33,012 nt of DNA from Syntrophus sp. PtaU1.Bin005 (GCA_002067745.1 MVRU01000026.1:1-33012), one strand, 5' to 3'. Shown: positions 11,961-29,788, numbered from the stretch's first letter. The notes: generated by a model from the sequence alone, not told the origin. A program made the numbers and translations.

Positions 11961-14006
11961 TCACTCCACCATTGCTTTCAGCAGGGCATCCCTGGCATCG
12001 GAATAAAATTGAATGTCAATCTTGGTCGCCATGTCATCCGATAGATCAATAAGCTGCCGACGGCAGGCGACCGGCATCAAAAGCGCTGAGGCACCTTTCT
12101 CAACCGCAATCTCGGCAATTGTGACGGGGTTGTGAATAGGCTCGATGGAGCCACCAAGATTAATCTCTCCCACGATGATGAGGCCGCCGCGCACGCTTTT
12201 CTTCAATAGAGCAGTACAGAGCGCGATGAGTGATGCCATGCCGAGTTTCGCGCCGGATTTCGAAGCGTCGAAGGCTCTGAGTTGCGCAGTGAATTCATGG
12301 TGCCGAGGGTCTTTGTCGCCAACCAGTTGCATAGACCTGGCGTAAAGATTTTGCTCGGCGTATCCCATGCTTTCCTTGAATGCTGGCGGAACCGGTTTGT
12401 TGAGGATCTTGACGCCGGAACCAGGGCCTTCGTTTATCTCGATGCGATGGAGCCCGGGATGTTCATCTCCACCACCTGGCGATATGGTCCATACCTGACC
12501 TGGTTCAAGGGGGTCACCACCAATGCTGTTTTCGTTTTGCAGTTCCGGTGTAGAAACAAACTTCTCGACGCCATCAGCGCCCATCACATAGCTAAAATGG
12601 GTGTTGCGAAATTCCGCCGCGCCGATGCGTTTCTGTTGTTCTTTAACGCGACGTCTAGCCTCCAGTGCTATATGGACAGCCCACTCGATGTCCTCGTCGG
12701 TTACCTCACCCTCACCCGGATAGAGGAGCTTGAGCAGTCCACTCACGGTTTTATTGACCGCATTCGTATCGCGCCCGGAAAGGGCACCTCCGAAAAAAAC
12801 CCGGTTCTGAAGCAAACTGACCCGGCTTTGATTCCGGAGCTGGCTCCAACACTCGGACAAGAAATCGCTGACGAGACCGAAGTGATTGGTCAAAAGTTCC
12901 TTGCTGATTTTAGGCACATCCCATCCCGGCAAAAACGCATGGATGCGATCCATGAACGCGGTGTCGTCTTTCATTTCCGGAGGCATGGGGCCGAACAAGT
13001 GCCCGATGCGCTGCTGATGCTCGACATCCACTTCGAAATTGCCGACCAGAACGATGCTGCCATCGGCGCGGATGCTTTCCTTACCACGGCTGAATTCACC
13101 GGACTCCATATACCCCTTCATGATGTTCACGCCATCCTTCTGGTCGAAGGAGATGCCGGACACTTCATCGAAGCAAACCACATCGTATTGGCAGACCAAG
13201 CCGCGCTGGCCGGATGCGTTGTTGACGAACATTCTGGCAACCGTTGCTTTGCCTCCCGAGATCAAGTGCGCATACGGTGAAACCTGCTGGAAGAGATGGC
13301 TTTTCCCCGTTCCTCTGGGGCCAAGTTCTACAAGGTTATAGTTACGTTCAACAAAAGGAACTATCCGCAGCATCAAGGCATCACGTTGCCGCTGAGACAA
13401 TCCTTCCGGTTCAATGCCGATGGAGCGAAGGAGGAATTCCTTCCACTCGCCAGTGGTAAAGGCCTTGCGAGCCTCGGCTAAGATGTCGAGCACATCCCGT
13501 TTGGATAACTGAATTTCCCGCAGGGTCCCGACACCGAAAGGCCTTCCTTTACTCTCCTGAGCAATAGCGGCATCGTAGTTCAGGCTGATTTCGGCATAAA
13601 AGCCGCCTGTCAACATCCGCTCGTGCTCATTGACCAGCTCGGGGCTAATCCGGACATCGGTCAGTCGCAAACTCGGCAGTGTTGCGATATAGGAGTCGGT
13701 CTTGGCATCCAGGCGGGCAGTAATGAGATCAATGATTTTGACCTCGCCGTTTTCCCTGGCCCGAGCCTTAAAGAGCTCTTCTTCGCCGGCCTTGACAGTT
13801 CGTGACTTGAGCTGCCTCTGGACGATTTCGAGACCCTCGTCGATCTCATCCTGATCGGTGCTGGCGCAGTACCGGCCAAGTAAAAACTCGACGACATAGG
13901 TTGGTACCGGAAACTGGTGACTGAACGTCCGAACCAGATCCTTCCGGACCAGGTACCCCTCCAGCGAGGAGGCCGCCTTTTTGTCGATCTGGTCCATTTC
14001 AATCAT
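11961..14006 (-). CDS. brxL: BrxL, BREX AAA+ protein with Lon-like C-terminus
   Basis: The 681-aa protein has a Walker A GPRGTGKS (about 229-236) and Walker B VVCFDEV, followed by SIVLVGNFEVDV and DRIHAFLPGW as in MCM-like AAA+ ATPases. The last ~110 residues look like a Lon (S16) domain: GGLIIVGEINLGGSIEPI and GASALLMP. At the place of Lon's catalytic serine (GPSAG) it reads SGAKLGMA, so the dyad serine is missing; characterised BrxL acts as a DNA-binding AAA+ ring, not a protease. It is required for phage exclusion in several type 1 BREX systems. Its start overlaps the end of pglZ by 8 bp. An alternative start is Met4. Confidence 0.93.
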   Translation of the reverse strand: MIEMDQIDKKAASSLEGYLVRKDLVRTFSHQFPVPTYVVEFLLGRYCASTDQDEIDEGLEIVQRQLKSRTVKAGEEELFKARARENGEVKIIDLITARLDAKTDSYIATLPSLRLTDVRISPELVNEHERMLTGGFYAEISLNYDAAIAQESKGRPFGVGTLREIQLSKRDVLDILAEARKAFTTGEWKEFLLRSIGIEPEGLSQRQRDALMLRIVPFVERNYNLVELGPRGTGKSHLFQQVSPYAHLISGGKATVARMFVNNASGQRGLVCQYDVVCFDEVSGISFDQKDGVNIMKGYMESGEFSRGKESIRADGSIVLVGNFEVDVEHQQRIGHLFGPMPPEMKDDTAFMDRIHAFLPGWDVPKISKELLTNHFGLVSDFLSECWSQLRNQSRVSLLQNRVFFGGALSGRDTNAVNKTVSGLLKLLYPGEGEVTDEDIEWAVHIALEARRRVKEQQKRIGAAEFRNTHFSYVMGADGVEKFVSTPELQNENSIGGDPLEPGQVWTISPGGGDEHPGLHRIEINEGPGSGVKILNKPVPPAFKESMGYAEQNLYARSMQLVGDKDPRHHEFTAQLRAFDASKSGAKLGMASLIALCTALLKKSVRGGLIIVGEINLGGSIEPIHNPVTIAEIAVEKGASALLMPVACRRQLIDLSDDMATKIDIQFYSDARDALLKAMVE

Positions 14007-16350
14007 GGTTTACTCCACCTATTACTGTGGCGATTTGCGCGACCAGCGATCCATTGGCATCGATTAGGACCACCGTGGCTTCTCGCCCCTCCATGTCCTC
14101 GTCTTCGACAACCACGGAGGCCATTCCGTTGTCTTTAAGCGGCTTGACGCCGACGACCACGCTGGACGATGCATTGCCGGCCTGGCTGCGAACATCAAGT
14201 AACAAACCGGAGTAGTTGCCATCCACTGCAACAGTGCAGCGCATTCCTTTCCACACCACGTCGGTAAATTTAACCGATGCTGCCACCTGAGCAGATGTTC
14301 CAGGCGTTACCGTCAATTGGAGCGTCAGGCACTCTTGTAAGCTTAGTCCGCCATGGGTGTACTCTTCACCTTTTTTGAAGCAGCTTACCCCATCAGCGAG
14401 TGCAAAATACTGGATCGGGTTCCAGTACCAGGGATAAAGCCTTTCCTCCGTGGAAGCTCCTGGCTTCAAGGACGCGCAGCGGCCCCATTTATTTTCCGTC
14501 AGGGCGCTGGGAAGATCGATCTTCGGCAAACCACCAGGTAACAACAGCCAGCCATGATCCGTGACGACACAAACACGCTTCCATCCCGCTGCCAAGAGTT
14601 CCGTAATGCGGTCCCTGATCTCCAGAATAAGGGTATCGATATGCTTGGCGAGTTTCCATCCACGGTCGTGTCCTTCATGGTCGATGTCTCCAAACTCACA
14701 CCAGGCCATGCCGTGGCCATCGCCATCAGCAGATCGTTCAAGGATGGACCATCCTGCATCGGTCAGTAGCTTCTTCAGGTGATTACCACCTTTCAATGAC
14801 TGACCGGTATCCACTACAGAAGGCTCGAAATCAGGGCTGCCATCCTGGCCCCGAATCTTGTCTCTCACCGGGGTTACAGCCGCTTTTCCGGTCGCGGTTA
14901 CGCTGGGCAAAGAAGCCCATGCCAGCGCCTCGGTGATCTCAAATCCACCTGCTTCCAGGGATTCAACCAAACGCTTTCCCACATCATAACGAAGACCGTC
15001 GATAAACAGAACGCAGTCACCTGGGCCGAACTGTTTTGTTTTTACCGTCAGGTAAGTGCCTCCCGGGTAAGATGCGCCATCAACCAGCTTCTGGAGATAC
15101 CGTGCTGATTCTTCCACCCACGGCAGGTAAACGGATCGGATAGCGGTTGTAACCACTTCAAAGTCGGCAGAGCTATCTACCTGTGCCAAAGCCCTAAGGA
15201 CTCCATCATCGACGCACCAGCCGTAACTACGATAACCCGCCGCGAGGTCGTTCATGGCACCCGCTGCAAGCCCAGTTTTCGTGTTCTCGGCTATGATGGC
15301 CAGGTGTTCCAATGCGCAGGCCAAGGGCGCGTCACCCAATTCGGCCCAGACCAAAGAGCGCCTGCGGCAGTGCTGTTTTTCAAAATCCTTGATCTTCTCT
15401 CTAGCTTCGTGTGCGGGCGCTTTGGCAAGGCCCATGAGATCACGTTGAAGGTTTTTCTCTTGGTCGTCATTCCATTGCGGCCAGCCGCCAGCCACTTGTT
15501 CATCAGCGAATAAGTCGAATATCGGTGGCTGACACTTTCTGATTTGCGCTGGAATATTGGGATACCGACGAGGTGCCTCGCAGTAACGCTCCCAAACAGC
15601 ATGCCACGGACCTTGGTGGTTTGCGAGCTTGGCACACCCCGCCAAGACGCCTTCGTTCTGGGGATTGAAGGCCAGTTGAGATTTGCAGACCTCAACAAAT
15701 GCTTTCCATTCATTTTCGCCGCGATTTGCTTGAAATGCATCGCCTTGGTCAAGCCACTGAAGCAAGTCGCGAATTGGATCACCGCCTGTCAGTAAAGTAT
15801 TGAAATAGTCTTTGTCGAGGCGCTTGCCTTTCAGCAAAGAGACATCCTCGTCGAGAAGCCTGTACAACGCGAGTTGCATGGCGTTCTTAACGTCGTTGTC
15901 CTGTGCCACATCCAGCCCTAGTCCACCCTGATCTGACTTCAAGTAGGCCAGTATAGTCCAGTCTTTCGCATTGATTTGTGACCAGATCACGCCTCGATAT
16001 TGAAGTTCGGCAAGCGGTTTTAAGTGGTCTGGGCAACTTTCGATGGCACGCAGATCCTGTCGGCTGACGCTAGGCAGATAAAAAATCGGCGGGTGATCCT
16101 TGGGCAGCGAAACATCCTCAGCACGACCGGCGATCACGCAGCGTAGCCAGATGGCAGGCCCCGTGCGCTTATCAGGCGCATAGTCACCCAGGATCATGAG
16201 TTCCGGTAACTCGGCCTGAAGAACGGGAATAACAGCCTGCCACTGCCGATCACGATCCGGCCACAGAATACAGGCCGGAGCCACCTGGATTTCAGGATTG
16301 AAAATAGCGGTATCACGAACGGCTTTCAGGAGATGATCAAGCACCCTCAT
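13999..16350 (-). CDS. pglZ: PglZ (BrxZ), alkaline-phosphatase-superfamily BREX core protein
   Basis: The 783-aa protein shows the PglZ hallmark. In its second half are CVLFIDGLRYDVGKRL, a metal-binding Asp motif, then about 150 residues later VVTDHGWLLLPGGLPK with the Asp-His pair typical of the alkaline phosphatase fold. The N-terminal part has the PglZ-like ACILWPDRDRQWQAVIPVL. It is one of the two BREX signature proteins (with BrxC) and may regulate PglX modification; nuclease activity has been reported for some homologues. The start overlaps the DUF262 gene's stop by 4 bp and its end overlaps brxL by 8 bp. Length and motifs look complete. Confidence 0.95.
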   Translation of the reverse strand: MRVLDHLLKAVRDTAIFNPEIQVAPACILWPDRDRQWQAVIPVLQAELPELMILGDYAPDKRTGPAIWLRCVIAGRAEDVSLPKDHPPIFYLPSVSRQDLRAIESCPDHLKPLAELQYRGVIWSQINAKDWTILAYLKSDQGGLGLDVAQDNDVKNAMQLALYRLLDEDVSLLKGKRLDKDYFNTLLTGGDPIRDLLQWLDQGDAFQANRGENEWKAFVEVCKSQLAFNPQNEGVLAGCAKLANHQGPWHAVWERYCEAPRRYPNIPAQIRKCQPPIFDLFADEQVAGGWPQWNDDQEKNLQRDLMGLAKAPAHEAREKIKDFEKQHCRRRSLVWAELGDAPLACALEHLAIIAENTKTGLAAGAMNDLAAGYRSYGWCVDDGVLRALAQVDSSADFEVVTTAIRSVYLPWVEESARYLQKLVDGASYPGGTYLTVKTKQFGPGDCVLFIDGLRYDVGKRLVESLEAGGFEITEALAWASLPSVTATGKAAVTPVRDKIRGQDGSPDFEPSVVDTGQSLKGGNHLKKLLTDAGWSILERSADGDGHGMAWCEFGDIDHEGHDRGWKLAKHIDTLILEIRDRITELLAAGWKRVCVVTDHGWLLLPGGLPKIDLPSALTENKWGRCASLKPGASTEERLYPWYWNPIQYFALADGVSCFKKGEEYTHGGLSLQECLTLQLTVTPGTSAQVAASVKFTDVVWKGMRCTVAVDGNYSGLLLDVRSQAGNASSSVVVGVKPLKDNGMASVVVEDEDMEGREATVVLIDANGSLVAQIATVIGGVNHD

Positions 16351-18173
16351 GCGTCACATCCCTGCAGTTTGAAGAGTTTGGTCACTTGTTGAACCAGCTT
16401 TTCAGTCCTTGAGTCGATCTGATCGACACTCCAACCAGCTGCGCTGGCCAGGTATTCATTGAGTTTGAGTCCATTTTTGTAGCCTACCGCTCGACCTTGC
16501 CGGTCCATACGATCTCGCTTGTCCTCAAAACTCTTATTTCCAAGAGCACTGTTAAATCCGGAAATTGTCAGGTTGCCCAATTTGTGAACATGCGTTTGTT
16601 GAATTTCCTTCGCCTTTTTTTCATCACCACCGGCAATCATGTTTATCCAGGACTGCGGGATATTATCTCCTTGAGGGAAAATATGCTCGATGGTCCACAT
16701 GAACTGCTTGTTTTCAAAGCGCCATAGATCCACCCAGGTTTCTTTGGTCATGGCCTGCTCGGCAAGTGCACAAAGAATGAACCGGGTTACCCCCGAGTTC
16801 TCCTCATAAATCGGGCCTTCTAACTTGTGCTGGAATGCATCATCCGAAGCAGATACAGCCACAAGTTGCTGCTCAATTGACTGAGGAATCGCGTCAGCAC
16901 GCAGCTTACTGATCTTTTCAATTACCGTCATGAAGAGCCGGTTAAGATCTCGTGTCGGAGGCGTGTCGGTAAGGTTACGGCGAACAAAGAAGCGGGCCAG
17001 AAGTTTGACTATTGACTCCAGGTGGTCATTAGTAAGTTCATGCTTATCTTTTTGCACAAGCAAATACAGCATCAGCAAGTAAGACGGTGCGCCCTGAATC
17101 CGGTCCAGATCCTTCAGCGGTTTTTCCAGCGGCTCCCAGGCTTCATGGTTATTGCGGCCAAGCATCAGCGCATACAACTGGCCAGCAGCGCGAATGGCCT
17201 GCAGGTGGTTTTTGGCGTCCTGATTGATCAGCTTTTCGTAAATCTGAATCAAGTTGGATCGAGTGGCCACCGGGCCCAGGGGATCTTTCTTCTTGTCGTC
17301 GTCTTTGCGGAAGGGTGCGTTCAGCGTGTCTTTGAACGCGTTGTAATAGTGCCTGAAAAAGCGCTCCTGAACGCTATAGTCATCTCCAAGGTAGCCCAGC
17401 AGTTTGTTCCATACATCAAAGTATTGGTCCACCTTGCCGGGTTCGGCAGATTCCAGTCGGGCCAGCAACTTGTTCTTGATTAAGTCGATGGCCGTAAGCG
17501 GCATGCCCCGGTTGTTGAGAGACTCGAAAAGCGTGTAGGCATCAGCATGGCTCGCCACTTCGATCTTCACCAGGCAGGCCTGGCTCACTTTGTCAAGGAA
17601 AGCCATGATTGACGCCAAACGATCGTTCTCGCCATTCACCATCTCTTCAATACGTGATTGAAAGTAGCGGAAGGCACGGAAGATCTTACGGTTTCCTGCG
17701 TAGGCTGGCGTATCGCATTGGCTGATTACACCCACCTCGGATAATACGGCGCGGTAGTCATTTTGGTTGTTGTTCTGAATCTGCGGAATGACGCGCAGCT
17801 GGTCATCTCCCTTTTTCAGCACCAGTTTGCGCTTGATATTGATCAGCTCCACACGCTGGTCATCATCCAGGTCTTTTTCGTGCAGCTTCAACGACTGGTA
17901 TAGTGCCGTAAACAAAAGAGACAGCGTCGTCAGCCGTTGCTGACCGTCCACAACCTCCAGGCGCTGTACGGCCAACGTGTCGGTGGTCTGGTTGATGCAG
18001 ATGATCGAGCCAAGGAAGTAGCTGGGGTCGTTTTCAAGCACATCGTCGAACAGGCTTTCCCACTGATTCTTACCCCAGGTATATTCCCGCTGGTAGCGGG
18101 GAATGGCATAAACCACTCCCGCTTCGATGTCGAAGAGCTGTGAGACTGGGTAGTTGTTAACCGACTTGATCAT
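16347..18173 (-). CDS. GmrSD/BrxU-like DUF262-DUF1524 nuclease
   Basis: The N-terminal DUF262 domain has IPRYQREYTW (24-33) and the nucleotide-binding signature DGQQRLTTL (76-84). A further core motif is TLFESLNNRGMPLTAIDLIKN at about 212-232, typical of the family. Helical middle part, then a C-terminal DUF1524 HNH-type nuclease: WTIEHIFPQ, HKLGNLTISGFNSALGN and SFEDKRDRM. This single-chain architecture (608 aa) is that of BrxU and GmrSD, type IV enzymes that cut modified phage DNA and use NTPs. It sits between pglX and pglZ, as brxU does in the Escherichia fergusonii plasmid BREX locus. Overlaps of 4 bp at both ends show tight coupling. It would cover phages that evade BREX through base modification (inference). 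Confidence 0.9.
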   Translation of the reverse strand: MIKSVNNYPVSQLFDIEAGVVYAIPRYQREYTWGKNQWESLFDDVLENDPSYFLGSIICINQTTDTLAVQRLEVVDGQQRLTTLSLLFTALYQSLKLHEKDLDDDQRVELINIKRKLVLKKGDDQLRVIPQIQNNNQNDYRAVLSEVGVISQCDTPAYAGNRKIFRAFRYFQSRIEEMVNGENDRLASIMAFLDKVSQACLVKIEVASHADAYTLFESLNNRGMPLTAIDLIKNKLLARLESAEPGKVDQYFDVWNKLLGYLGDDYSVQERFFRHYYNAFKDTLNAPFRKDDDKKKDPLGPVATRSNLIQIYEKLINQDAKNHLQAIRAAGQLYALMLGRNNHEAWEPLEKPLKDLDRIQGAPSYLLMLYLLVQKDKHELTNDHLESIVKLLARFFVRRNLTDTPPTRDLNRLFMTVIEKISKLRADAIPQSIEQQLVAVSASDDAFQHKLEGPIYEENSGVTRFILCALAEQAMTKETWVDLWRFENKQFMWTIEHIFPQGDNIPQSWINMIAGGDEKKAKEIQQTHVHKLGNLTISGFNSALGNKSFEDKRDRMDRQGRAVGYKNGLKLNEYLASAAGWSVDQIDSRTEKLVQQVTKLFKLQGCDA

Positions 18174-21100
18174 TCATTCTCCTCCTGGTGTTCAACAACA
18201 ATACGTTGAGCCTCTCGGTCATAGCCATCCGCCAAGTCTCTCAAGGTAACGGCAAATCGTTGAAAACCGGCGTTCTCCACATCCTCGGCTTTACTTCGGA
18301 ACTGTTCAGCCAGTTCTTTTTCCGGGTTGCCCGTTGGATCAACCCTATGAACACCGCGTGAGTTGAAAGTTCCTGTTCTGAAACCATTGCGCATGTCTTC
18401 AGCATCACGGTCATTCAGGGCTGTGGCGACAGCACTGTGTATCCACAGCCCGTTCGGATCTGATGGGGCGTGAATCAAAACTTCACCAATATGAATCAAC
18501 GCAACCTCCAGGTGACCTGACTCTGCGCACAGTGTTTTGACGCGCTGGAGCCATTCGTTGAAATGCTCTTCGCTGAAAGTTCCACCTTCCTGTGTCCCCG
18601 GAGGTGTTTCCCACTCATCCAGAAGCCGCCAAGCATTTGTTGCTATTGCCTTTGATTCCTCAGTAGGTTCCCTTGACGGTTGATCTTCTTTCTTTGAGCG
18701 GTAGATCAGTTGGATCACCTCACAAAAGAACTCAGGATCACTGGCCAGCCTGCTTTCGAGGAGTTTGGGTACGGCTCCTCTATGACGGTCCAGCAAGGGG
18801 AGATATGCCCACTCCACTTTAAAGAGGTCTTCTTGGGGAACCAAAGGATCTGACTGAAGAAACTTAATCAGTTCGATGATGTCATATCCATCCATGGCAT
18901 CGGTTGGTTCACTGGAAGAAAGCGCGGTGAGCAACGCTCGAATACATTGATCAACATCGATTGGCTGCTTGGCATGACGCATCCTGTCCAGGCAATTGAT
19001 CGCCGCATGTGGCCTTGCATGTTCGATAAGCTTTTCAATGGCAATGGCAAGATCGCCATCGGCTTGATAGGCATTGGCACCGGTGCGGGACCAATATTCA
19101 TTCTCATTTTCTTTAAGCCATTCAGAAACACGATCCCATGCCTCCTTAGTAAAAGGCAGGCAAGCCAGGAATTGGCCTATTTGCCCTGGCGTCCAACCTG
19201 ATTTATCGACGTTGTCGCACCATTCCCATCCGTAGATATGGTATCGCCGCCAGACGAATCCGCTGACCAAAGCCTTGTTCTTGTAATCCTTCGCATTTAA
19301 AAAGTGAGGTAAAAGGGTCAGATCAATCACATCATCCGCGATAACGCCAAGTGAGTGACCTACCTTGCCCGGTGAAGTTACGGATTCGGCAAATCGGACG
19401 ACACTTTCGACACCATTTTGCTGAAAGATTTCCGTTATGGCTGTTTCCCGCCGCGCGTTGAGTTTCCTTTGCTGCTCTTCCCAATCGCCGTTATCCTTGA
19501 AGAGATCAAAGTCATGATCAGCAAAGAGATGTTGATACAGGTTGAATGGATTTGTTGGGGTGAGCTTTTCAGAAACATTTTCAATGCGGGAAATCAAGTC
19601 ATCGGGCAATGCCCATTTTGCATCTGAAAACCGCCGGTGTTTGTTTGTGAATTTCGTTAGATGATCCCAAAGTAGAAGTCGTTGGTCTTCAGGAAGTTCG
19701 GATATGGTTTGTGAGGAAAGAACTTCGGCAAGTTGATCAAAGGCTGGTTCAGGCAGGTGATCAAAATGATCAATCAATTGTGAGAGCCGAGTGGTTTCAT
19801 AGTTAGCGGCACTCACTGCAAGCTCCGCATAAAACGACGCCTGTTGCCAGTATTCTTGATGTGTTACGCCCTTATCCAAGTCATCAGGGATTATATTCCG
19901 CCAATTTGGCTTGTATGACCCAAAAGAGGTCTGGTGTTGGCCGGGTAGCAACTGAATGATCAATTTCCAGGCGATATCCGGCCACTCCTTAAGGAGTGTT
20001 TGCACCGCCACCCTGCGCTTATCAACAGACGCCATCGTTTGAGGAAACCAAGGGAGCAAAATGGTTGCCAGTGAATTGGAAGGGCGATTAGCCCACTGAC
20101 CGCCGGGATCATGACTGGCAAGTTCGCCAAGCGCAATACAGACTCTAACAAGGTATTGTTCATCCCAGGCTAATCCTTCCAGTGCCCAGAGTAAACCTGT
20201 TATATAGTTCCTGCCAGTGATACCGTTGCCTTCTTGGGCAAAAAGCTCATCAAAAGGACAGGGTGACAGTCGCAGCGCCTTTTCGACCTCACCAAGGAAT
20301 TCACCTGGGGCAGCTTCGGCTAGAGTGGGCAATAAACTGTTCAAGCTGCCCCAGATAACCCCGTCAGCGGCAGTAAGAGTATCGCGTATCACCAATATGC
20401 AGGTCGACTCTGCTTTCCCTTGTGTACAGTTGATACACGCATCGGGCTGGTTACCCAGAATAGCTAGCCCCTCTGCGACTCCATTTCGCAATACCTGGGA
20501 ATACTTCAGCACCTTACCATGGATACTGGCCGCATATCGCTCTTCGGCAGGCAGTTCGAAAACAGGGTCAGGCTCTTTCAGTATGGTGACAACAAGGGAC
20601 TTAAAGGTCTCAAGATTCTGATCAAGGATGCGCGATCCTAGTAGGTTCCAAAGCTCAGCTCGATTGACGACTTTCCAGATGCCGTTTTTGAGAGACAATG
20701 GGCTGGCAGGGCAGTGCAATATTTCTCGCGCCTTCTGTAGCCAGGCTTCGTAACCGATTCCGAGCAACTGGGTAATTGCTTCAATGTCACTTTTGCTCTT
20801 TTCATTCCAAGCTCCAATCAGAACTGCCAACGCCAAGTAGGTGGCGTCAGAATGATTTTTCCAATCATCGGAAAGCTCTTTCGGTTTTGGTTTAGCGATA
20901 GAATTCAGGTTATGAATTGCTGCCTTAACTGCAGTAAGGCACATTTCAGCAGTGTATCTGTCTGGATGAAAGTCTTCTTTCATCTGCTGATACGGATGGA
21001 TGTAATTGCGAAAATTTCTCAGGTGGTGTCCGAAATTCTTTACATCTAGCCTTAAGATGCCGAGGCCGTGGGCGACGTCAATAAATTGTGCGAGACTCCA

Positions 21101-21412
21101 ATCTTTAAACGGTTTCGGCTTCCCATTTTCGTCCTTTGGAGACCGCGACGAACGATTGAAATCCGCAGGCCTTTTATTCGCTAAACCAAGAAGAAGGCCT
21201 TCTAGCAAGGAGCCACAAAGCATGATGGTGGCCATAGGTGAGTGTGCCACGCAACACTGTGCCTCTCTGAAACGGTCTTCCAAAATGGTGATAAATCCTG
21301 AGTCCACTAAAGAAGAATGCAGGGATAGTTCCTCAACAGCCTGAGAAGGTGCCTCGATCATGGTTTTAATTTGAAGGGAATTCAATGATTCTTGTTTCAG
21401 TTCACCGCTCAT
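18170..21412 (-). CDS. Large HEPN-domain protein, BREX accessory of unknown function
   Basis: The 1080-aa protein has an N-terminal HEPN-like domain (~35-170): MATIMLCGSLLEGLLLGLA, then WSLAQFIDVAHGLGIL, then LRNFRNYIHP (131-140). This supplies an R-x6-H motif (R132, H139), the catalytic pattern of many HEPN RNases. The remaining ~900 residues look all-helical, with many short leucine-rich and tryptophan-containing segments, suggesting a long repeat scaffold; no Walker motif is seen. It overlaps pglX and the DUF262 gene by 4 bp each. Base composition is more AT-rich than the start of pglX (25 G+C of 60 in 20881-20940). A scaffolded RNase that fires when BREX or the nuclease fails is one hypothesis; a structural sensor with an inactive HEPN fold is another. 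Confidence 0.75.
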   Translation of the reverse strand: MSGELKQESLNSLQIKTMIEAPSQAVEELSLHSSLVDSGFITILEDRFREAQCCVAHSPMATIMLCGSLLEGLLLGLANKRPADFNRSSRSPKDENGKPKPFKDWSLAQFIDVAHGLGILRLDVKNFGHHLRNFRNYIHPYQQMKEDFHPDRYTAEMCLTAVKAAIHNLNSIAKPKPKELSDDWKNHSDATYLALAVLIGAWNEKSKSDIEAITQLLGIGYEAWLQKAREILHCPASPLSLKNGIWKVVNRAELWNLLGSRILDQNLETFKSLVVTILKEPDPVFELPAEERYAASIHGKVLKYSQVLRNGVAEGLAILGNQPDACINCTQGKAESTCILVIRDTLTAADGVIWGSLNSLLPTLAEAAPGEFLGEVEKALRLSPCPFDELFAQEGNGITGRNYITGLLWALEGLAWDEQYLVRVCIALGELASHDPGGQWANRPSNSLATILLPWFPQTMASVDKRRVAVQTLLKEWPDIAWKLIIQLLPGQHQTSFGSYKPNWRNIIPDDLDKGVTHQEYWQQASFYAELAVSAANYETTRLSQLIDHFDHLPEPAFDQLAEVLSSQTISELPEDQRLLLWDHLTKFTNKHRRFSDAKWALPDDLISRIENVSEKLTPTNPFNLYQHLFADHDFDLFKDNGDWEEQQRKLNARRETAITEIFQQNGVESVVRFAESVTSPGKVGHSLGVIADDVIDLTLLPHFLNAKDYKNKALVSGFVWRRYHIYGWEWCDNVDKSGWTPGQIGQFLACLPFTKEAWDRVSEWLKENENEYWSRTGANAYQADGDLAIAIEKLIEHARPHAAINCLDRMRHAKQPIDVDQCIRALLTALSSSEPTDAMDGYDIIELIKFLQSDPLVPQEDLFKVEWAYLPLLDRHRGAVPKLLESRLASDPEFFCEVIQLIYRSKKEDQPSREPTEESKAIATNAWRLLDEWETPPGTQEGGTFSEEHFNEWLQRVKTLCAESGHLEVALIHIGEVLIHAPSDPNGLWIHSAVATALNDRDAEDMRNGFRTGTFNSRGVHRVDPTGNPEKELAEQFRSKAEDVENAGFQRFAVTLRDLADGYDREAQRIVVEHQEENE

Positions 21413-24400
21413 CTTATCCCCTCCCGTGCGGCACGTTTCTCGGCCAGGGTCAGGTGGTGGTCATTGATGCGGTCGCCCTTGAACACGTTATACCAAGGGG
21501 CGGATTCCACGTCCTTGCCCCGGTCCTTGTTCCATTTGATGTTGGGTTTGTCGCGCAGGACGCCTGCTCCTTTCTTGCCGACATCGGGTACGGTGAGGAA
21601 GGGGCGGATGTTGAGGCGCACGCCGTCGTTGAGATCCGGGTCCCAGCCTATGGGCTGCTTTTCCAGCGGCTTCCAGCGCACGAAGATGTCATAGGGCGCT
21701 TCGCCTTCTATGATCAGTTCCAGCTTTTTCTTGAGGGCCTCTGCGGCAGCCAGTCGTTCCTGGGCTCCGTCCACACCGCCGGCGATATCCTGCTTCTGGC
21801 GGCTGATCCAGTCGCCCAGATAGGTGTAGATCAGAGTCTCCAGCAACTTGGTGTCGAGCTTGTGATAATTGACCAGGGCGGCAAAGCCGTCGCGCAGGCC
21901 ATCCCAGATGTGCCAGATGAAGGGGCGATGCTGGAACAGCTTGCAGTGCTGGGTGAAGAACTTCTCCCGCAGCCAGGTCTCCAACGTTTTGCCCGCATGA
22001 TTGGCGCTCTTCAGCAGCGCAGCCAGGGTATCGTTGGACCAGGCATCGCCATAGGCAGCGACCAGCAGGTTCAGCAAACGGTCAGCCGCCGAAGCCTCGC
22101 CCCGCACCGGCGGAATGCAGACGATGCCGTCCTCATCGGCGTAGCCAGCCAGGGCTTCGCAGTGATTGACCCATTCGCGCTGCTCGTCTGTCAGTTCCAT
22201 GTTGGCATCAAGCTCGGCAGGCCAGCGGTAGCCGAGGAGGCGGGCAACGGCGACGTGCAACACGGTGTCATCGGTGCGCAGCGGGCCGTGAGCAGTCCAT
22301 TTTTTCTCTTCATTCCAGATGACCGAGCCGCAGGGGTGGCCGTGGAAGATCCATTGGGTGGGATCGTCGGTATAAGGTTTGGGTAGGCCGTTGGGGTATT
22401 TTTTCCCGGTGACTTTGGTCCAGTAACCAAGATTGAAGGGCACTTTGACCATAGTGTGAGCAGCTACATCCAATTTTTGATTTAGTTTTCTTATCTCGGA
22501 TAAATACTCACCTGATTCTATGAAGCTGAAAATCGAGGGCAAAAAGCCGTTGTTATTCTGGGTCAAGACAGAAGTGTTATTGTCGAAAATGTTCGAGCAA
22601 TAAATCGAAAAAGGCATTTCTCTCATTTGAGATTGAATAATACCTGGTTTCCCCCAAACATCTTGACTTCGGATTCCAAATTCCTTGATGCCTTGCTTAT
22701 CAATCTCATCGAGAGTTAAACAGACCTTTTCTTTGCCAGAATAATGCCTTTTCGTTGATGGAGTTGATTCCAACAATTGCCATACCGCGGGAATTCCAAA
22801 AAACTCCCAGTGATACTTCACGACTCTGTCGGTCTGACCTGGTTTCGAACCGTAATTGATGGTAGCCACTTCAGAGAGCAGAGAAGAGTTATTTACTGCC
22901 TGAAATACGACAACAGCATCCGGATTCTCCAGCTGTTTGGTCTGCACAACACTCTTTATTTCAGCAGCCAACAACTGTTCAGCTTTTTCGGCGGCAGTCC
23001 GGGGTTCAGATACATCCACGCCGCGAATCAAGTTGCCATCATCTGACTCTCCAAACAGCCCGCCCGATTCCTTTGTTGAGTTGCCATGACTTATAGTAAT
23101 CAATTGGACATTGAAGTCCCACATAGGGGTTTGAAATGCCTGTGGTCCCAAACGGGCAATCAGATGCCAGGTGTCGTTCTTCAGCAGCTTCTCACGAAAT
23201 TTCTTGTAGCTTGTCAGAAACAGCCAGTTCTGAGGTAAGACAATGCTGGAGGTGCCGCCCTGGACACAGAACTCCAGACAGCGGTCGAGAAATACGGTCG
23301 CCAGATCGTTCTTCGCAGCTGAATATTGCCTTTCGCAGAAATCTCTCAGCCGCTTGTTTTGCTTGCCTCGCACCAGATACGGCACGTTGGTTATGACCCA
23401 TTGATACCGCCCGGCAAGCAGGGTTGCGGCTTTTGCCAGTCCCTGGGCAACAACAGCGACTTCCTGTTGTTCCTCGCCTTGTTCCTGATTCAATGCCTGT
23501 TCCACTGCGCTGGAGAGTTCGTCCCAATGCACCAGCTTGGCGGCGTCGGTTTTGACAGGATTAAGCAGGCTGCCCAGTACCGGAGCATCCTTGAAGGTTT
23601 CGTACATCCAGTCGAGGGCAATTCGAAGATTGTGTTTACCCATAGCCAACTGTTTCCATTCTTCCTTGGCGACGCTTACCGAAAAACCGGAACAAGCCAC
23701 ATTCAGTCCCGGCAACACGCGATAGCCCCCGGCACCGGGGTATTTCCACGCGGTCAGCGCCAGGGCGAAGGCGGCCAGTTCCACGCAGCGCTGATCCAGT
23801 TCCAGACCATGGATGTTTTCCCGCAGCACGGCATCCACCGCTTCTTTGGCCGAAAGGCTGTCGCGCTCCATGCGCATGGTCACCAACATCAGGAAGGCAG
23901 CGACCAGAAAGTGACCCGAGCCGCAGCAGGGGTCGAGGGTCTTAAGGTCGGCAAGCTGCTCCGGCCAGCCGTCAAAGGTTCCGGCTGCCGGTGTCCATCT
24001 CTTGTTACCTTCTGGGTCTTCCACCTGCACGAAACGCAGATACTCCAGCGGCACGCCGGGGATGGCCGCTTTCCGGCGCAGCTCTTCTTCGCTGCTGGCG
24101 TTTTGGAGGTCGGCCTCGGTGAGCCGTCTTGCCGCCCACCAGGCTCCCAAAGAGTTGTCGAGCAGGAAGCTGACCATGTAGGGTTCGGTGAAGAGCTGGG
24201 TCACCGCGGGCAGCTCCCGTGCGCCGATCTTGACCTCGGAGGCGTTGATCTCGTCCTTTTTCTTGGCCTGCCAGAATTGATAGACCCAGCCGAGGCTGTC
24301 GGAGGCGGTAAACACCTCCAGCGGCAGGTCGGCCACCAGGCTTTTCAGCTTTTGCTGGTGCTCCGGGGGCAGCACCAGTTGGAATACCGGAGAGTCGAGC

Positions 24401-24840
24401 CGGAAGATCTGCGGCAGCATGCGGGCGGCGAACCGGGCGGCCAGTTCCCAGCCGTTGGCCGCGCCTTCTTCGGCGGCGAGGTCTTCACACTCTTCGAAGG
24501 TGACAGCCACCGGATCGTCCGGGTCCGGATACATCAGCAGGTTATTCTCTGCCAGGAAGCGGGCAAAGAGCATGCGGTGCCAGTGTTCGTAGGCAACCTC
24601 TTCGATCAGGCGATCCATTGTTTGGATCTTGCCACCATTCAGGGAATCACCCAGTTGACGACCGTGGACACGCAGCTTGCGACGCAGCTCCCTGTCCTGC
24701 TCGCTCAGGTAGGCAAAGGGTGTGGCCTCACCGACACCAAGATGTTCCAGCGCAGCACACGCGGCTTTCTCGGCGATGTCACGCGCATCCTTGATGGTGC
24801 ATTCGAGTTGGTTTCTCAGTATCTTGTCCAGTGGCTGCAT
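21409..24840 (-). CDS. pglX: PglX (BrxX) adenine-specific DNA methyltransferase
   Basis: The 1143-aa protein has the SAM-binding motif DPCCGSGHFL (~303-312) and the catalytic motif IV as NVPY (~485) rather than NPPY. IHGLELDQRCVELA is motif II-like. The protein is of normal length for type 1 PglX. It methylates adenine in an asymmetric site on host DNA and so marks self. Residues ~580-800, the likely target-recognition part, are encoded by clearly AT-richer DNA than the N-terminal part. It starts 3 bp after the DUF4062 gene's stop. Phase-variable repeats were not found in it. Confidence 0.95.
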   Translation of the reverse strand: MQPLDKILRNQLECTIKDARDIAEKAACAALEHLGVGEATPFAYLSEQDRELRRKLRVHGRQLGDSLNGGKIQTMDRLIEEVAYEHWHRMLFARFLAENNLLMYPDPDDPVAVTFEECEDLAAEEGAANGWELAARFAARMLPQIFRLDSPVFQLVLPPEHQQKLKSLVADLPLEVFTASDSLGWVYQFWQAKKKDEINASEVKIGARELPAVTQLFTEPYMVSFLLDNSLGAWWAARRLTEADLQNASSEEELRRKAAIPGVPLEYLRFVQVEDPEGNKRWTPAAGTFDGWPEQLADLKTLDPCCGSGHFLVAAFLMLVTMRMERDSLSAKEAVDAVLRENIHGLELDQRCVELAAFALALTAWKYPGAGGYRVLPGLNVACSGFSVSVAKEEWKQLAMGKHNLRIALDWMYETFKDAPVLGSLLNPVKTDAAKLVHWDELSSAVEQALNQEQGEEQQEVAVVAQGLAKAATLLAGRYQWVITNVPYLVRGKQNKRLRDFCERQYSAAKNDLATVFLDRCLEFCVQGGTSSIVLPQNWLFLTSYKKFREKLLKNDTWHLIARLGPQAFQTPMWDFNVQLITISHGNSTKESGGLFGESDDGNLIRGVDVSEPRTAAEKAEQLLAAEIKSVVQTKQLENPDAVVVFQAVNNSSLLSEVATINYGSKPGQTDRVVKYHWEFFGIPAVWQLLESTPSTKRHYSGKEKVCLTLDEIDKQGIKEFGIRSQDVWGKPGIIQSQMREMPFSIYCSNIFDNNTSVLTQNNNGFLPSIFSFIESGEYLSEIRKLNQKLDVAAHTMVKVPFNLGYWTKVTGKKYPNGLPKPYTDDPTQWIFHGHPCGSVIWNEEKKWTAHGPLRTDDTVLHVAVARLLGYRWPAELDANMELTDEQREWVNHCEALAGYADEDGIVCIPPVRGEASAADRLLNLLVAAYGDAWSNDTLAALLKSANHAGKTLETWLREKFFTQHCKLFQHRPFIWHIWDGLRDGFAALVNYHKLDTKLLETLIYTYLGDWISRQKQDIAGGVDGAQERLAAAEALKKKLELIIEGEAPYDIFVRWKPLEKQPIGWDPDLNDGVRLNIRPFLTVPDVGKKGAGVLRDKPNIKWNKDRGKDVESAPWYNVFKGDRINDHHLTLAEKRAAREGIR

Positions 24841-24843
24841 GGA

Positions 24844-26343
24844 TTACGGCTCCATATAATTCGAAAAAAAATCACGGCCCTTTTTGGTAAGTCGGTACTT
24901 CTGGGTTGGACTGCGGGGTGAATCTGGTTGTGTCATCTCAATCAATATCATTTTCAATGCGGGTTGCAGATAGTCGTAGAGGAAGGTCGGACGGTGGCTC
25001 AATTTAAGACCTTCCATCATTTCGCGGGTTCCCAACTCATTTTCTTTCAAGATGGCAAGCAACCGTCGAACTTGTTCGGTTACTTGTTCGGTTACTTGTT
25101 CGGTTACTTGTTCGGTTACTTGCCTGATGCTTGTTTTTCGGTGAATAGTGGTGACCCATACGCCGCCATCCAGCCGGATATCCGGTTCAGGCAGGCCCGC
25201 CTCCTTGCAGCGTTGAATCATGTCGTGGATGCCGGTTCCCATACGCTCGATGTACTTGGTCAGATACATGGGCTCGGCAATCAAGGGATTGGCGGGGACG
25301 GACGCATGCGGTCCTTTGAGTTTTTCGAGGGACAGCGTGGGCGGAAGGCTGCCGGGATTCCAGACTTCCAGCCGGTCCTTGAACAGCATCACCTGCACGC
25401 TGGCGTTACTGGTGTAGTCACGGTGGCAGACGGCATTAACGATGGCTTCAGCCACGACCTCCTGTGGAATCTCGTAGGAGGTGGGAACTTGAATCCCCTG
25501 TGAGCGATCGCCGGTCCACAAGTCGATTTTTGAGAGCACAAAATCCTTTGCTTGATCCACCAACTCAAAAACGGTGCCTTTGTAGACCTGATAGGAGGGT
25601 ATGGGTTTTTCCACTTCAAACCCATGAAAATGGGCACACTTAACTTCGGATGTTATCAGGAACCTCTGCGGCTTCTTGCCAAACAACAAGATGGCGGCAT
25701 GGGTTGGTCGCCCCTTGTCGAGCAGATTCAGATGGACCAGGACCTCCTTGGGGTGCGTATTCTCCGCTAAAGGAAAACTGCGGCCGCGCCGGGCCAAAAC
25801 CAGAAACCGGGAGATCTTTTCGAAATCCAGGTCCTCCAAAGTCGCATTACGACAGAAGGTAGCGTCAAACGGAGTAAAACGGATCAGTTCCCGATCCTCC
25901 AACAATTTGACCAGACTGGAATAGACAGCGGCAATCAACTCTTCGGCTGAATTGATTCGGCGGCGGATCAAGGCGGTCCCGGCTTCATCAATGAGCCCTC
26001 TCATTTTCGGGTGACGTTGGGTATCATCGTTTCCTTTGACATAGATGAGGCGGTTTTTACCCAATTCTGTAGCTTTGCGGAATTCCCTGTGAGTCGGGGA
26101 AAGCCCCTCTCTGTCTTCCCATCCATACTCATTGCCGAAAATTCCCAAATAAACATCACAACGCTGAATCTCTTCCAGATAGCAGGCATCTGCTCTTTGG
26201 TCTGCCGCAGGCATATCTTCAAACAAGAACACCTCAAAGAACCGGCGCAGGAGGGCGTCTCCCTGCAGGTAATCCCGCAGAACGATGCGTTCTGTTGCCA
26301 GTTCCTTCTGGACGCTGCTGATGAAGATACGCAGAGGGGTCAT
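24844..26343 (-). CDS. DUF4062 + ATP-binding (AlbA/Schlafen-like, COG2865) protein
   Basis: The 499-aa protein begins with a DUF4062 domain: LRIFISSVQKELATERI, then CDVYLGIFGNEYGWEDREGLSPTHREF and KNRLIYVKG, a fold related to TIR-like nucleotide-binding domains. The middle (~200-400) matches proteins of the COG2865/HATPase_c_4 group: EIPQEVVAEAIVNAVCHRDY, then DRLEVWNPGSLPP and IERMGTGIHDMI. A VTEQ tandem repeat links to a winged-helix C-terminus. Such proteins are predicted regulators or effectors; DUF4062 proteins occur in defence islands. It overlaps brxC by 4 bp and ends 3 bp before pglX, so it is built into the BREX core between brxC and pglX, where BREX loci do not usually have it. Confidence 0.85.
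   Translation of the reverse strand: MTPLRIFISSVQKELATERIVLRDYLQGDALLRRFFEVFLFEDMPAADQRADACYLEEIQRCDVYLGIFGNEYGWEDREGLSPTHREFRKATELGKNRLIYVKGNDDTQRHPKMRGLIDEAGTALIRRRINSAEELIAAVYSSLVKLLEDRELIRFTPFDATFCRNATLEDLDFEKISRFLVLARRGRSFPLAENTHPKEVLVHLNLLDKGRPTHAAILLFGKKPQRFLITSEVKCAHFHGFEVEKPIPSYQVYKGTVFELVDQAKDFVLSKIDLWTGDRSQGIQVPTSYEIPQEVVAEAIVNAVCHRDYTSNASVQVMLFKDRLEVWNPGSLPPTLSLEKLKGPHASVPANPLIAEPMYLTKYIERMGTGIHDMIQRCKEAGLPEPDIRLDGGVWVTTIHRKTSIRQVTEQVTEQVTEQVTEQVRRLLAILKENELGTREMMEGLKLSHRPTFLYDYLQPALKMILIEMTQPDSPRSPTQKYRLTKKGRDFFSNYMEP
25071..25122. repeat. 12-bp in-frame tandem repeat (VTEQ linker)
   Basis: Four full copies of CTTGTTCGGTTA (25071-25118) plus a partial copy. On the minus strand it encodes VTEQ units in a linker between the ATPase-like part and the winged helix of the DUF4062 protein. 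Because the unit is 12 bp, slippage would change the linker length without a frameshift. Similar TEQV repeats are known in related COG2865 proteins. Confidence 0.9.
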
Positions 26344-29300
26344 ACAATCACCGGTCCCTTCTTGATTTTTTCCAGCAGAATGGTCCGGCTCTCTTCAATC
26401 CAGGCATCCACATCGGCTTCGGATTTCAGCGTGCGGCCGGGAAGAGAAACATCCTGGACTTTCGGTTCCATCATTTTAGCTGCGCCAAAGATAACTTGGT
26501 CAAAACGCCCAGGCATAGCGGCGATACGGTCACGGAGCGATTGAAGAGAGATGGAATCCAGTGTATTTAGAATGGCGACAGTGTCTTCCACGGTAATTTT
26601 CGGAACGGACGAAGCGATGAGTTGCTGTTTGGTGCGTAATTCATATCGTTGTTCCTGTTCCAACTGCATCCAGTTGTCATCCGCTTTCAGCTTATCTTCT
26701 CCAGCTTCCCAAAGCTGATCCCATTGGACTTTTAACTGGTTCAATTCATCCCGCAAAAGTTGCGTGAGGTTGGCGATCAGTGGCAAGACCGGATCTAGGT
26801 CTTCGAGAAGCTGGCGCTGCTGCTCAATGGTCTTCACCTGGGCCAGAATCACCGCCGCGTCCTGAAGTCCGGAGGCTTGGTCCATCAGTCGCTTCAGTAC
26901 GGCCCAGTTCGGCCAGCGTTTAGTGATGCGTTCAGTAAGATTGGTCCAGCCATCGATGCTGCTTCCGAGTTCATCCCGCCGATTGTAGAGGACAAGCAGT
27001 TGTTCATTGCCAGCCATAAGGCTGATTTCGTTGAGGAATGCGGTATCTGGCCGCGCCGGTTTTGGAGCCTCACCGCCAGCATGGTCGGCGAGATCCAGCA
27101 TCTTTTGCAGGAAATGCGGGACATAGGCCAACTCCTCGCCCTGCTTGGCCGATAGGCCGACCTTCTGCAGCAGCTTGCGGATCTGGATGCGTTGAACGGT
27201 GGTAACGGTGGCAGATTCCACCTTGAACATCACCTTGCCGATGGTCTTGCGCTCCAACTCCTTAGGGTCGAGAGTTTGCCCGCGCTCGTCTTGAACCCGG
27301 ATCAGACCCGCCACCAGCAGCACTTGCAGCCCTCCATCCACCGCATCACGCGACCACCCATAAGGTGACGACTCGAACTGCGTGCGGATGTCCGCACCTT
27401 TCTTGCCACCGGCAATGAAGCCGAGAATGGCTTTACACACCGGGTTCTTGACGGGCTCACCTTCATCGCCCACAGCTTTCAGTGCGTCGGGAGCACCTTT
27501 CTGCGCCTTCTCATAGACCTTGGGCCAACCCACATGGTCGGCGGTATGGAACTGCGGGTAGAGCCGTTGCAGTGCGTTACCGGAGGCCTCCAGCACCATC
27601 TCCTGCAGGTCGTTGCCGAGGATTTCGTTACCGCCGCCCTGAAAGACGCGAGCTCCCGAAAAGGCTTCTTCAAGCAGTTCCCGAATCTTTCCTTCGGCGG
27701 TCTGCTTGGTGGTCTCCATGGCCGAACGGGCCTCGGTGCCTTCCGGTGTGTTGGGGACGCCGCGCTTATCGAGCGTGGCACTGGCTGCCTTGTAATCAAT
27801 GAGGTGATGGCGGAGATCGTCGGCCGAGCGCTTGGGAATAAACACAAAAACGGTCGGCGACTGGTTTCCAGCCTGACGGGCATCGGCGCGTACTGAATTT
27901 TCATCGATGCTCCATCCGTCACGAACCCACACGCAAATCCGCTGGTCGGCATCCGCTGGAAGCTGGGCGTCAAAAACCGGAGTGATGTCGCGGTTGACCT
28001 TTGAGCTGCCCTGGGTCAGAGAAAGTTTGCGCACCAGCTCCCCGAATTTCTTGCGGATGCGGTCGTCGCGTTCGGCCTCGATACGGTGCGCTTCGTTGGA
28101 CAAGGCAGATCTCTGGCTCAGGAACTCATCGCTCCAAGCCGCGCTTTCTTCGGTCTGGATTCGGTATTCATCGCCGACCTTCATCAACAGCTCACATTTG
28201 TCGAGAAGGCTGGGCAACTTGCTCCGCAAATTGCTGCTGCCGCGAGAAAGATCCTCGACCAGGAGATCAGCAAGGGTGTCGCTGGTGGCTCGGATACCGA
28301 TTTCGTTGTTTTGACCGCCGAGTTTGTTGATCAGGAAGGCCAGGCCGCAAGCGCGAGCCATGAGCCGCTCTTCTTCCGTCCCCTTGTTCCAGCTCATCGT
28401 CTTTTCGTGAACCTTGCGCGGTATAATGCGTGACTGGAGCAATTTGTCAGCAGAGTCGAAATAGAGGTAGTCGGCTGGTACAACATGCCCCAACGGCTCA
28501 TTCAGGTTGGTCTGAATAACCTTGTGAACCATACTGAGCTGGTTACGAAGCTGGCTGTCGGTTCCGGTTTGGTCCAGGACCCGCAGGGTATTTTCCCAGA
28601 AACGGCGGCGCACCGGTAAAATCGGATAGTCCTGCACAAAATAAGGAATATCATCCTGTCTGTGGCCGATGGTCGTGTCCGCCAGATGCCGGGAGATCTC
28701 GCCCAGATTGGTTTGCATAATCTGCTCGATGGGTAATTTGGCCTCAGGTTTTTTTGCCAAAATGACCTGACGGATGACGGCATCGACGTCAGTATCTGAG
28801 AGCTCCACGCGAATGGTGAAACGTCCTTCCAGTTTTTTAAGGTTGCTGGTACCTGTAACAGCGGTCTGGCCGGTACCAATGAACAGTAACTTGCCTCCAA
28901 TGTTCTTGCAGCACGATTCCACTGCCTCCTGGACATCCATAGAACGCTGACTGTCTTCGCCGATGTACTGTTGGACCTCGTCGAGTACGATAAGCGTCAG
29001 GGGGAATTTCCCATCCTTCGTCAGCGCCTGTCGAATTGCTTTAAGCATGTCATCACTCGAAATGTCTTGAACGTAGGGATAGAGGTTGTTCAGGGTTTCG
29101 ACGCAGGATGCAGGAGAAGAAAAGAGTTTAGGTTTGGCTTGGACCAGAGCATCATGGAGTCCTTCCGCTACATAGAAATTGTCCATCTCTTCGTTCCAGT
29201 CGAAGCCGCTTTGCTCAACGTGGGTGCGGAGCTGTTCATAGATTCCTTCGTGCTTGAGCCACATGATGAAGCGGGCCACTGGGTACTGCTCAGGCAGGCC

Positions 29301-29777: not shown

Positions 29778-29788
29778 CAACCCCTCGT

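What the first reader, a model, noticed from the sequence alone, without database searches (positions are those of the whole stretch)
16347..21412. HEPN mega-protein plus BrxU-like nuclease as a cassette inside BREX
Seen: a 1080-aa protein with an R-x6-H HEPN motif and a GmrSD-like nuclease occupy the space between pglX and pglZ with 4-bp overlaps on every side. The nuclease position matches brxU in known loci; the large HEPN partner is not a standard BREX gene to my knowledge. A two-part effector, RNase plus modified-DNA nuclease, is a fair hypothesis.
Basis: partly seen in the sequence, partly recalled or inferred. Interest (0 to 1): 0.7.

Follow-up and report, generated by a model that had tools for sequence, protein, structure and literature searches.

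The report
RNase-sensor gene carried inside BREX
Between two core genes of a BREX anti-phage operon sits a giant protein that joins a probable RNA-cutting (HEPN) domain to a large helical, probably sensing, module which other bacteria fit with different front domains; it looks like a self-contained second line of defence, and the DNA-cutting gene beside it is probably independent.

Summary
Inside a complete type 1 BREX operon (brxA-brxB-brxC-[DUF4062 gene]-pglX-HEPN gene-GmrSD gene-pglZ-brxL) lie a 1080-aa protein and a 608-aa DUF262/DUF1524 (GmrSD) nuclease, joined to neighbours by 4-bp ATGA overlaps. The R-x6-H match alone is chance-level, but R132, R135, N136 and H139 are invariant in 18 diverged relatives, and the N-domain modelled alone has the HEPN fold (best Z 12.1). 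The other ~900 residues are a winged helix plus alpha-solenoid, a widespread family of unknown function (PHROG 18693) whose members mostly stand alone and carry other N-termini: nuclease-like, HTH plus PD-(D/E)XK-like, a second HEPN-like type, or none. The HEPN version was found twice, both times in BREX, on two different solenoid lineages. The 'two-part effector' is not supported: the second HEPN-solenoid BREX locus has no GmrSD, a Pseudomonas BREX plasmid has the same GmrSD without the HEPN protein, and no other fetched solenoid or HEPN locus holds a full GmrSD relative. Best reading: a self-contained sensor-RNase abortive-infection protein carried as BREX cargo, with GmrSD as an independent type IV restriction layer. 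A PrrC-like guard of BREX is the main rival. No function was tested.

The parts
18170..21412 (-). HEPN-wHTH-alpha-solenoid protein, 1080 aa
   Evidence: no Pfam (DUF4145 E 0.15 only), PADLOC or NCBIfam match; PHROG 18693, unknown function, E 1.8e-121 over residues 169-1070
20894..21301 (-). HEPN domain, residues ~38-173
   Evidence: model pLDDT 86.7; VIA-align Z 12.1 to HEPN 2hsb, 11.2 HepT, 9.6 AbiA, 9.0 Csm6
20990..21019 (-). candidate active-site motif R132-N-F-R135-N136-Y-I-H139-P140-Y141
   Evidence: R132, R135, N136, H139, P140 invariant in 18 relatives
20669..20845 (-). predicted winged helix, residues ~190-248, at the start of the module shared with other N-termini
   Evidence: helix/strand order in the model; homology to nuclease-type relatives starts at residue ~173-183
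18173..20665 (-). alpha-solenoid (HEAT/ARM-like), residues ~250-1080, putative sensor
   Evidence: model pLDDT mostly 80-95; only generic solenoid matches in PDB
16347..18173 (-). GmrSD-family (DUF262+DUF1524) putative type IV restriction enzyme, 608 aa
   Evidence: GmrSD_N E 4.9e-37, GmrSD_C E 1.6e-18; DGQQR at 76, EHIFP at 496
13999..16350 (-). pglZ, type B
   Evidence: NF033450 957.6 bits against cut-off 400
11961..14006 (-). brxL
   Evidence: PADLOC BrxL 8e-303, Pfam BrxL_ATPase 3.4e-132
21409..24840 (-). pglX
   Evidence: PADLOC PglX 1800 bits
24844..26343 (-). accessory gene in the brxC-pglX gap: DUF4062 + HATPase_c_4 + Fic-like_C
26340..29834 (-). brxC
   Evidence: NF033441 954 bits against cut-off 400
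29789..30340 (-). brxB (no NCBIfam model matched; named by position and 87-91% identity to genes in the same place in the nearest other BREX loci)
30327..31136 (-). brxA (no NCBIfam model matched; named by position and 78-84% identity to genes in the same place in the nearest other BREX loci)

Best explanation
A self-contained sensor-effector protein carried in the accessory slot between pglX and pglZ. Shown: the N-terminal ~170 residues have a predicted HEPN fold with invariant R/N/H; residues ~183-1080 are a winged helix plus alpha-solenoid that is conserved while the N-terminal domain changes. Inferred: the solenoid keeps the HEPN domain silent and recognises a phage component or infection state directly; binding lets HEPN domains pair and cut RNA (host tRNA or mRNA), stopping growth when restriction fails. 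The neighbouring GmrSD would independently cut phage DNA with modified cytosines, so the slot stacks complementary layers on BREX.
For: HEPN fold and invariant residues. The ~900-aa module is 66-79% identical in single ~1180-aa proteins of very different bacteria, with a different N-domain, and 24-48% identical on plasmids with HTH-containing or other N-termini. Eight of eight genomes checked with the standalone form have no match to this PglZ, so the module does not need this BREX to be kept. The boundary at residue ~173-183 is where the fold changes from HEPN bundle to winged helix. The two HEPN-type solenoids sit on different nuclease-type lineages (one clade rejected, p-AU 3.2e-05), so front and body recombine. 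In 11 other BREX loci of the same phylum holding at least the end of pglX, the pglX-pglZ interval varies and has no HEPN-solenoid and no GmrSD. Type IV BrxU acts independently of BREX (PMC12707154).
Against: No activity shown; RNA target and trigger unknown. Both HEPN-type members lie in BREX, and 5 of 9 close HEPN-only relatives lie by type I RM genes, which suits a guard role tied to restriction systems. The full-length model has modest overall confidence (pTM 0.53), and generic solenoid matches say nothing of a ligand. No member has a demonstrated defence phenotype that I know of; the weak link to PD-Lambda-4_A covers only ~110-170 residues in a few diverged members and not this protein.
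Confidence: 0.5

Rival explanations
1. PrrC-like guard: the protein is held silent by the intact BREX complex and its HEPN RNase is released when a phage BREX inhibitor (such as Ocr or OrbA) disables or remodels BREX.
For: It is embedded between pglX and pglZ with ATGA overlaps, like prrC inside a type I RM locus; HEPN-only relatives sit beside hsd genes in 5 of 9 close genomic loci; one nuclease-type solenoid gene lies between hsdS and hsdR with 4-bp overlaps (L126); the concept is established for HEPN-RM pairs (PMC3710099) and backup suicidal effectors are proposed for BREX (PMC12839542). Both HEPN-type members are in BREX.
Against: The solenoid, the likely sensor, mostly lives outside BREX or RM loci, in genomes without this PglZ. 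No ABC ATPase as in PrrC. No data on binding to BREX.
Confidence: 0.3
2. One reading: HEPN protein and GmrSD act together as one RNase plus modified-DNA nuclease system.
For: Adjacent, co-oriented, with a 4-bp overlap in the window.
Against: Second HEPN-solenoid BREX locus lacks GmrSD; a GmrSD 57% identical occurs in a BREX locus without the HEPN protein; no other fetched solenoid or HEPN locus holds a full GmrSD relative. BrxU works alone.
Confidence: 0.05
3. The HEPN domain is not catalytic here but a dimerisation or RNA-binding adaptor; the solenoid acts as scaffold.
For: Some HEPN families are non-catalytic (PMC3710099); two HEPN-only relatives sit beside a caspase-domain gene and an AbiH gene (L019, L037), so the domain may also couple to other effectors; R135-N136-x2-H139 might be structural.
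Against: R132, R135, N136, H139 all kept in distant relatives, and R-x6-H-x-Y matches the R-x4-6-H-x-Y pattern of HepT toxins (own knowledge).
Confidence: 0.15

Closest known systems
PHROG 18693 (unknown function)
   Same: The C-terminal ~900 residues belong to it (E 1.8e-121, residues 169-1070 to profile 340-1244 of 1258).
   Different: The profile's first ~340 positions are not matched; in the window the N-terminus is a HEPN domain.
DUF4145-like HEPN proteins, standalone or in RM operons (Anantharaman 2013)
   Same: N-domain fold, R..RN..H motif, occurrence of relatives by hsd genes.
   Different: Below the Pfam gathering score (12.6 against 23.1 bits); fused to the winged helix plus solenoid.
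PrrC and RloC anticodon nucleases
   Same: HEPN RNase domain; PrrC embedded in a restriction operon.
   Different: No ABC ATPase (no Walker A motif); HEPN is N-terminal; BREX instead of type I RM.
Avs / STAND NLR-like defence proteins
   Same: Swappable N-terminal effector plus long C-terminal helical repeat (comparison from own knowledge).
   Different: No Walker A motif in the window protein.
BrxU / GmrSD type IV restriction enzymes
   Same: The neighbouring gene has DUF262 + DUF1524, DGQQR and an HNH-like motif.
   Different: Lies between the HEPN gene and pglZ, not between brxC and pglX as in pEFER; EHIFP instead of DHIYP.
PD-Lambda-4 (component A)
   Same: A ~110-170-residue stretch of some diverged solenoid members matches the model (E 1e-4 to 0.035).
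   Different: No match in the window protein; too weak for membership.

Membership tests
HEPN superfamily | four-helix HEPN fold | tested here: met
   model mef7ec13349c6, pLDDT 86.7; Z 12.1 to 2hsb (rmsd 2.9, 119 aligned); HEPN or HEPN-like chains fill nearly all of the top ~30 rows, clearly unrelated rows at about 6.5 and below
HEPN superfamily | conserved R-x4-6-H with polar residue after R | tested here: met
   R132-N133...H139; R132 and H139 invariant in 18 relatives
HEPN superfamily | RNase activity | not testable with these tools
   needs biochemistry
Pfam DUF4145 (PF13643) | score above gathering threshold 23.1 | tested here: not met
   12.6 bits; the L002 copy reaches 22.9
PHROG 18693 | profile match over most of its length | tested here: met
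   E 1.8e-121, positions 340-1244 of 1258
BREX type 1 | brxA, brxB, brxC, pglX, pglZ type B, brxL in one operon | tested here: met
   brxC, pglX, pglZ, brxL by models; brxA and brxB by position and identity to the same genes in other BREX loci
GmrSD / BrxU type IV restriction | DUF262 + DUF1524 in one chain with DGQQR and HNH motif | tested here: met
   (EHIFP in place of DHIYP)
GmrSD / BrxU type IV restriction | cleavage of DNA with modified cytosine | not testable with these tools
   needs biochemistry
PrrC / RloC | ABC ATPase fused to HEPN | tested here: not met
   no Walker A motif, no ATPase family match
PrrC / RloC | gene embedded in a restriction or RM-like operon (true of PrrC) | tested here: met
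   between pglX and pglZ
Avs / STAND NTPase | P-loop NTPase with Walker A | tested here: not met
   no Walker A motif in the window protein
PD-Lambda-4 | component A model match | tested here: not met
   no match for the window protein
HEPN + GmrSD two-part system | the pair co-occurs elsewhere | tested here: not met

The most novel reading that the evidence does not exclude
A previously undescribed defence family in which one ~900-aa winged-helix/alpha-solenoid sensor is refitted with different N-terminal domains (HEPN-like RNases, nuclease-like domains, HTH plus PD-(D/E)XK-like, a HetE-N partner), a P-loop-free analogue of NLR/Avs proteins; and a BREX cargo slot that grows by tandem cassettes bounded by pglX-3' and pglZ-5' copies, in which HEPN-fitted versions sit on two solenoid lineages.
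Probability: 0.35. Interest if true: 0.75.

Novelty: new variant of a known kind. Interest (0 to 1): 0.55.

Why it matters
HEPN genes beside restriction and BREX systems are known, and so are GmrSD enzymes in BREX. New here is the fusion partner: a large, widely spread solenoid module of unknown function whose N-terminal domain is swapped between unrelated types. If confirmed, it gives a sensor scaffold without an obvious nucleotide switch, testable by domain swaps, and shows that BREX accessory genes can be autonomous defence units. It also corrects the idea that this HEPN protein and GmrSD form one machine.

Tried and rejected
Pair hypothesis tested by co-occurrence and not supported. Sequence profile of the solenoid against PDB: no match up to E 5. 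Nuclease-type N-domain (class B): no credible Pfam or PDB match, and Pfam Cap4_nuclease gave no match in three of four class B genomes and one sub-threshold match, in a 1435-codon frame rather than the class B gene, in the fourth, so 'nuclease-like' rests on an invariant E...DD...QxK pattern read from alignment A7. Class D N-domain: only chance-level PDB matches; PD-(D/E)XK-like by reading only. Whole-model fold search: generic HEAT/ARM solenoids; an Avs3 row at Z 5.6 over 79 residues was not taken as evidence. PD-Lambda-4 kinship considered, too weak. Phage records: no match. Megablast of 23.3 kb of the locus against plasmids: one 124-bp match only. Scanning the window's class and sampling its phylum found no further HEPN-solenoid fusion, nor did 369 genomes of another class. 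A +1 frameshift in the two-gene class E loci was considered; a strong AGGAGG ahead of the second ATG makes re-initiation the simpler reading.

Full report
Observation. The window holds a type 1 BREX operon on the minus strand: brxA 30327-31136, brxB 29789-30340, brxC 26340-29834, an accessory gene 24844-26343 (DUF4062, HATPase_c_4, Fic-like_C), pglX 21409-24840, the 1080-aa protein 18170-21412, a DUF262/DUF1524 protein 16347-18173, pglZ type B 13999-16350 and brxL 11961-14006. No NCBIfam model matched brxA or brxB; they are named by position and by 78-91% identity to the genes in the same places in the nearest other BREX loci. The pglX/HEPN, HEPN/GmrSD and GmrSD/pglZ junctions are 4-bp ATGA overlaps.

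Is the HEPN motif real? The pattern R-x4-6-H occurs five times in the protein and 5.3 times on average in shuffled versions, so by itself it is worthless. But relatives of the first ~180 residues, most of them free-standing proteins of about 240-310 aa, keep R132, R135, N136, H139 and P140 without exception in an alignment of 18 sequences whose identity to the window falls to 23%. The domain modelled alone (pLDDT 86.7, pTM 0.78) is a HEPN bundle: the VIA-align list is led by HEPN proteins, with AF0298, HepT toxins, sacsin HEPN, AbiA and Csm6 at Z 12.1 to 9.0, and clearly unrelated folds follow only at about 6.5 and below. Foldseek alone gave no E below 0.001 but put HEPN chains in its top ranks. 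Pfam DUF4145, a HEPN family, scores 12.6 bits in the window (cut-off 23.1) and 22.9 in the closest homologue, so 'DUF4145-like' is as far as one can go. Catalysis is not shown.

The rest of the protein. Residues ~183-1080 have no Pfam, PADLOC or NCBIfam family but belong to PHROG 18693, unknown function (E 1.8e-121; all 19 aligned relatives match it). The model gives a winged helix at ~190-248 and then an alpha-solenoid; PDB matches are generic HEAT/ARM proteins. There is no Walker A motif.

Relatives. In 13 loci from genome contigs of very different bacteria (the record titles name, among others, Desulfogranum, Verrucomicrobia, Chlorobium, Neomarinimicrobiota, Legionella and a Clostridiaceae MAG) the module is 67-79% identical. 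In ten of them it belongs to a single ~1180-aa gene with another N-domain, here class B; two are incomplete at one end; the thirteenth is L002. The class B domain has an invariant E...DD...QxK pattern, which I read as nuclease-like; no HMM confirms it. Plasmid and viral loci add class D, 1250-1380 aa, some with an XRE HTH, plus a domain with invariant GxDG...WE...KA..D; class C with a short N-terminus, one of which (L016) has a HetE-N gene upstream; and class E, two overlapping genes of which the first carries a second HEPN-like motif, RNEHYH in two of three loci and RSEQYH in the third. So the module is constant and the front is exchanged.

HEPN-solenoid fusions are rare. Only the window and L002 (MAG STC_100) have them, and both are in BREX between pglX and pglZ. 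A tree of the modules puts the window copy in one nuclease-type clade and the L002 copy in another; holding them together is rejected (delta lnL 66, p-AU 3.2e-05). Either the HEPN front was fitted twice, or one fusion later exchanged its body. Eight of eight genomes checked with standalone solenoid genes lack a match to this PglZ.

The pair. L002 has no GmrSD. A GmrSD 57% identical to the window's lies directly before pglZ in a Pseudomonas veronii BREX plasmid, preceded by a DUF932 gene, not a HEPN protein. A search of all loci fetched by then with the window's GmrSD hit only the window's own locus, L162 and a partial match in L091, none of them another HEPN or solenoid locus; one search agrees. 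One HEPN-only locus (L043/L133) has a 131-aa ORF with 26% identity to the GmrSD N-terminus. Eleven further BREX loci of the same phylum that hold at least the end of pglX show a variable pglX-pglZ gap (AAA with DUF4276-like, AlbA-like or PHP-like genes, read from sequence by eye, and some nearly empty) with neither gene. BrxU, the archetype, lies between brxC and pglX (PMC8565348) and acts independently of BREX (PMC12707154). The two genes are therefore best seen as separate cargo.

Mechanism. Two readings remain. (a) Autonomous sensor-effector: the solenoid, which mostly lives outside BREX, senses a phage product and releases the RNase. (b) PrrC-like guard: HEPN-only relatives lie beside type I RM genes in 5 of 9 close genomic loci (L118, L120, L121, L130, L156; not L119, L133, L134, L153, whose held flanks are partly short), one class B gene lies between hsdS and hsdR with 4-bp overlaps (L126), and HEPN genes with RM and Pgl/BREX systems were described by Anantharaman et al. 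2013 (PMC3710099) and Rakesh and Krishnan 2026 (PMC12839542). I favour (a) because the probable sensor is kept without BREX elsewhere, but the HEPN front's occurrence in restriction operons keeps (b) alive.

Novelty. HEPN in RM and BREX and GmrSD in BREX are known. The fusion of a HEPN domain to this swappable solenoid, and the solenoid family itself as a modular putative defence family, I did not find described; my search covers only the held open-access library and the family libraries named. Rating: new variant of a known kind.

Limits. Flanks of many loci are only 1.5-8 kb; the sample of HEPN-solenoid fusions is two; family counts come from sampled genomes; effector labels for classes B and D are by reading; no function was tested.

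Noticed in passing
L002:13275-13784 and 15331-15840 (also L087:12631-12696, L089:9708-9902): In the second BREX locus an ORF made of the first 67 aa of PglZ, a ~70-aa linker and ~30 aa of the PglX end occurs twice (98% identical over 300 nt), separating cargo genes: the slot looks like a tandem array of cassettes bounded by pglX-3' and pglZ-5' copies. Two other BREX loci show short pglX-3' remnants after cargo.
   Followed up: partly
L096, L097, L098 (G355:C133, G493:C174, G400:C1): Short ORFs or stretches matching only PglZ residues ~3-73, with no full pglZ on the fetched stretch.
   Followed up: no
L122:2290-5515, L123:7524-10740, L124:2-3095: Class E: the solenoid gene is split inside its winged helix into two ORFs overlapping by 11 nt, with AGGAGG before the second ATG; the first ORF carries a HEPN-like RNEHYH motif (RSEQYH in L122).
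   Followed up: partly
window:7935-11816: Downstream of brxL: a UvrD-like helicase, a DarT (Pfam E 6.4e-22) and, instead of a macro-domain DarG, an ADP-ribosylglycohydrolase fused to a glyoxalase domain.
   Followed up: no
window:24844-26343: DUF4062 + HATPase_c_4 + Fic-like_C gene between brxC and pglX; related genes sit in the same or the pglX-pglZ gap in several other BREX loci.
   Followed up: no
L019:7581-9892, L037:3673-5865: HEPN-only relatives next to a caspase-domain gene and to an AbiH gene, respectively.
   Followed up: no
G534:C1:1722-2174 (L156): The genome holding the second HEPN-solenoid BREX locus also has a free-standing relative of the HEPN domain beside an hsdM-like gene.
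   Followed up: no
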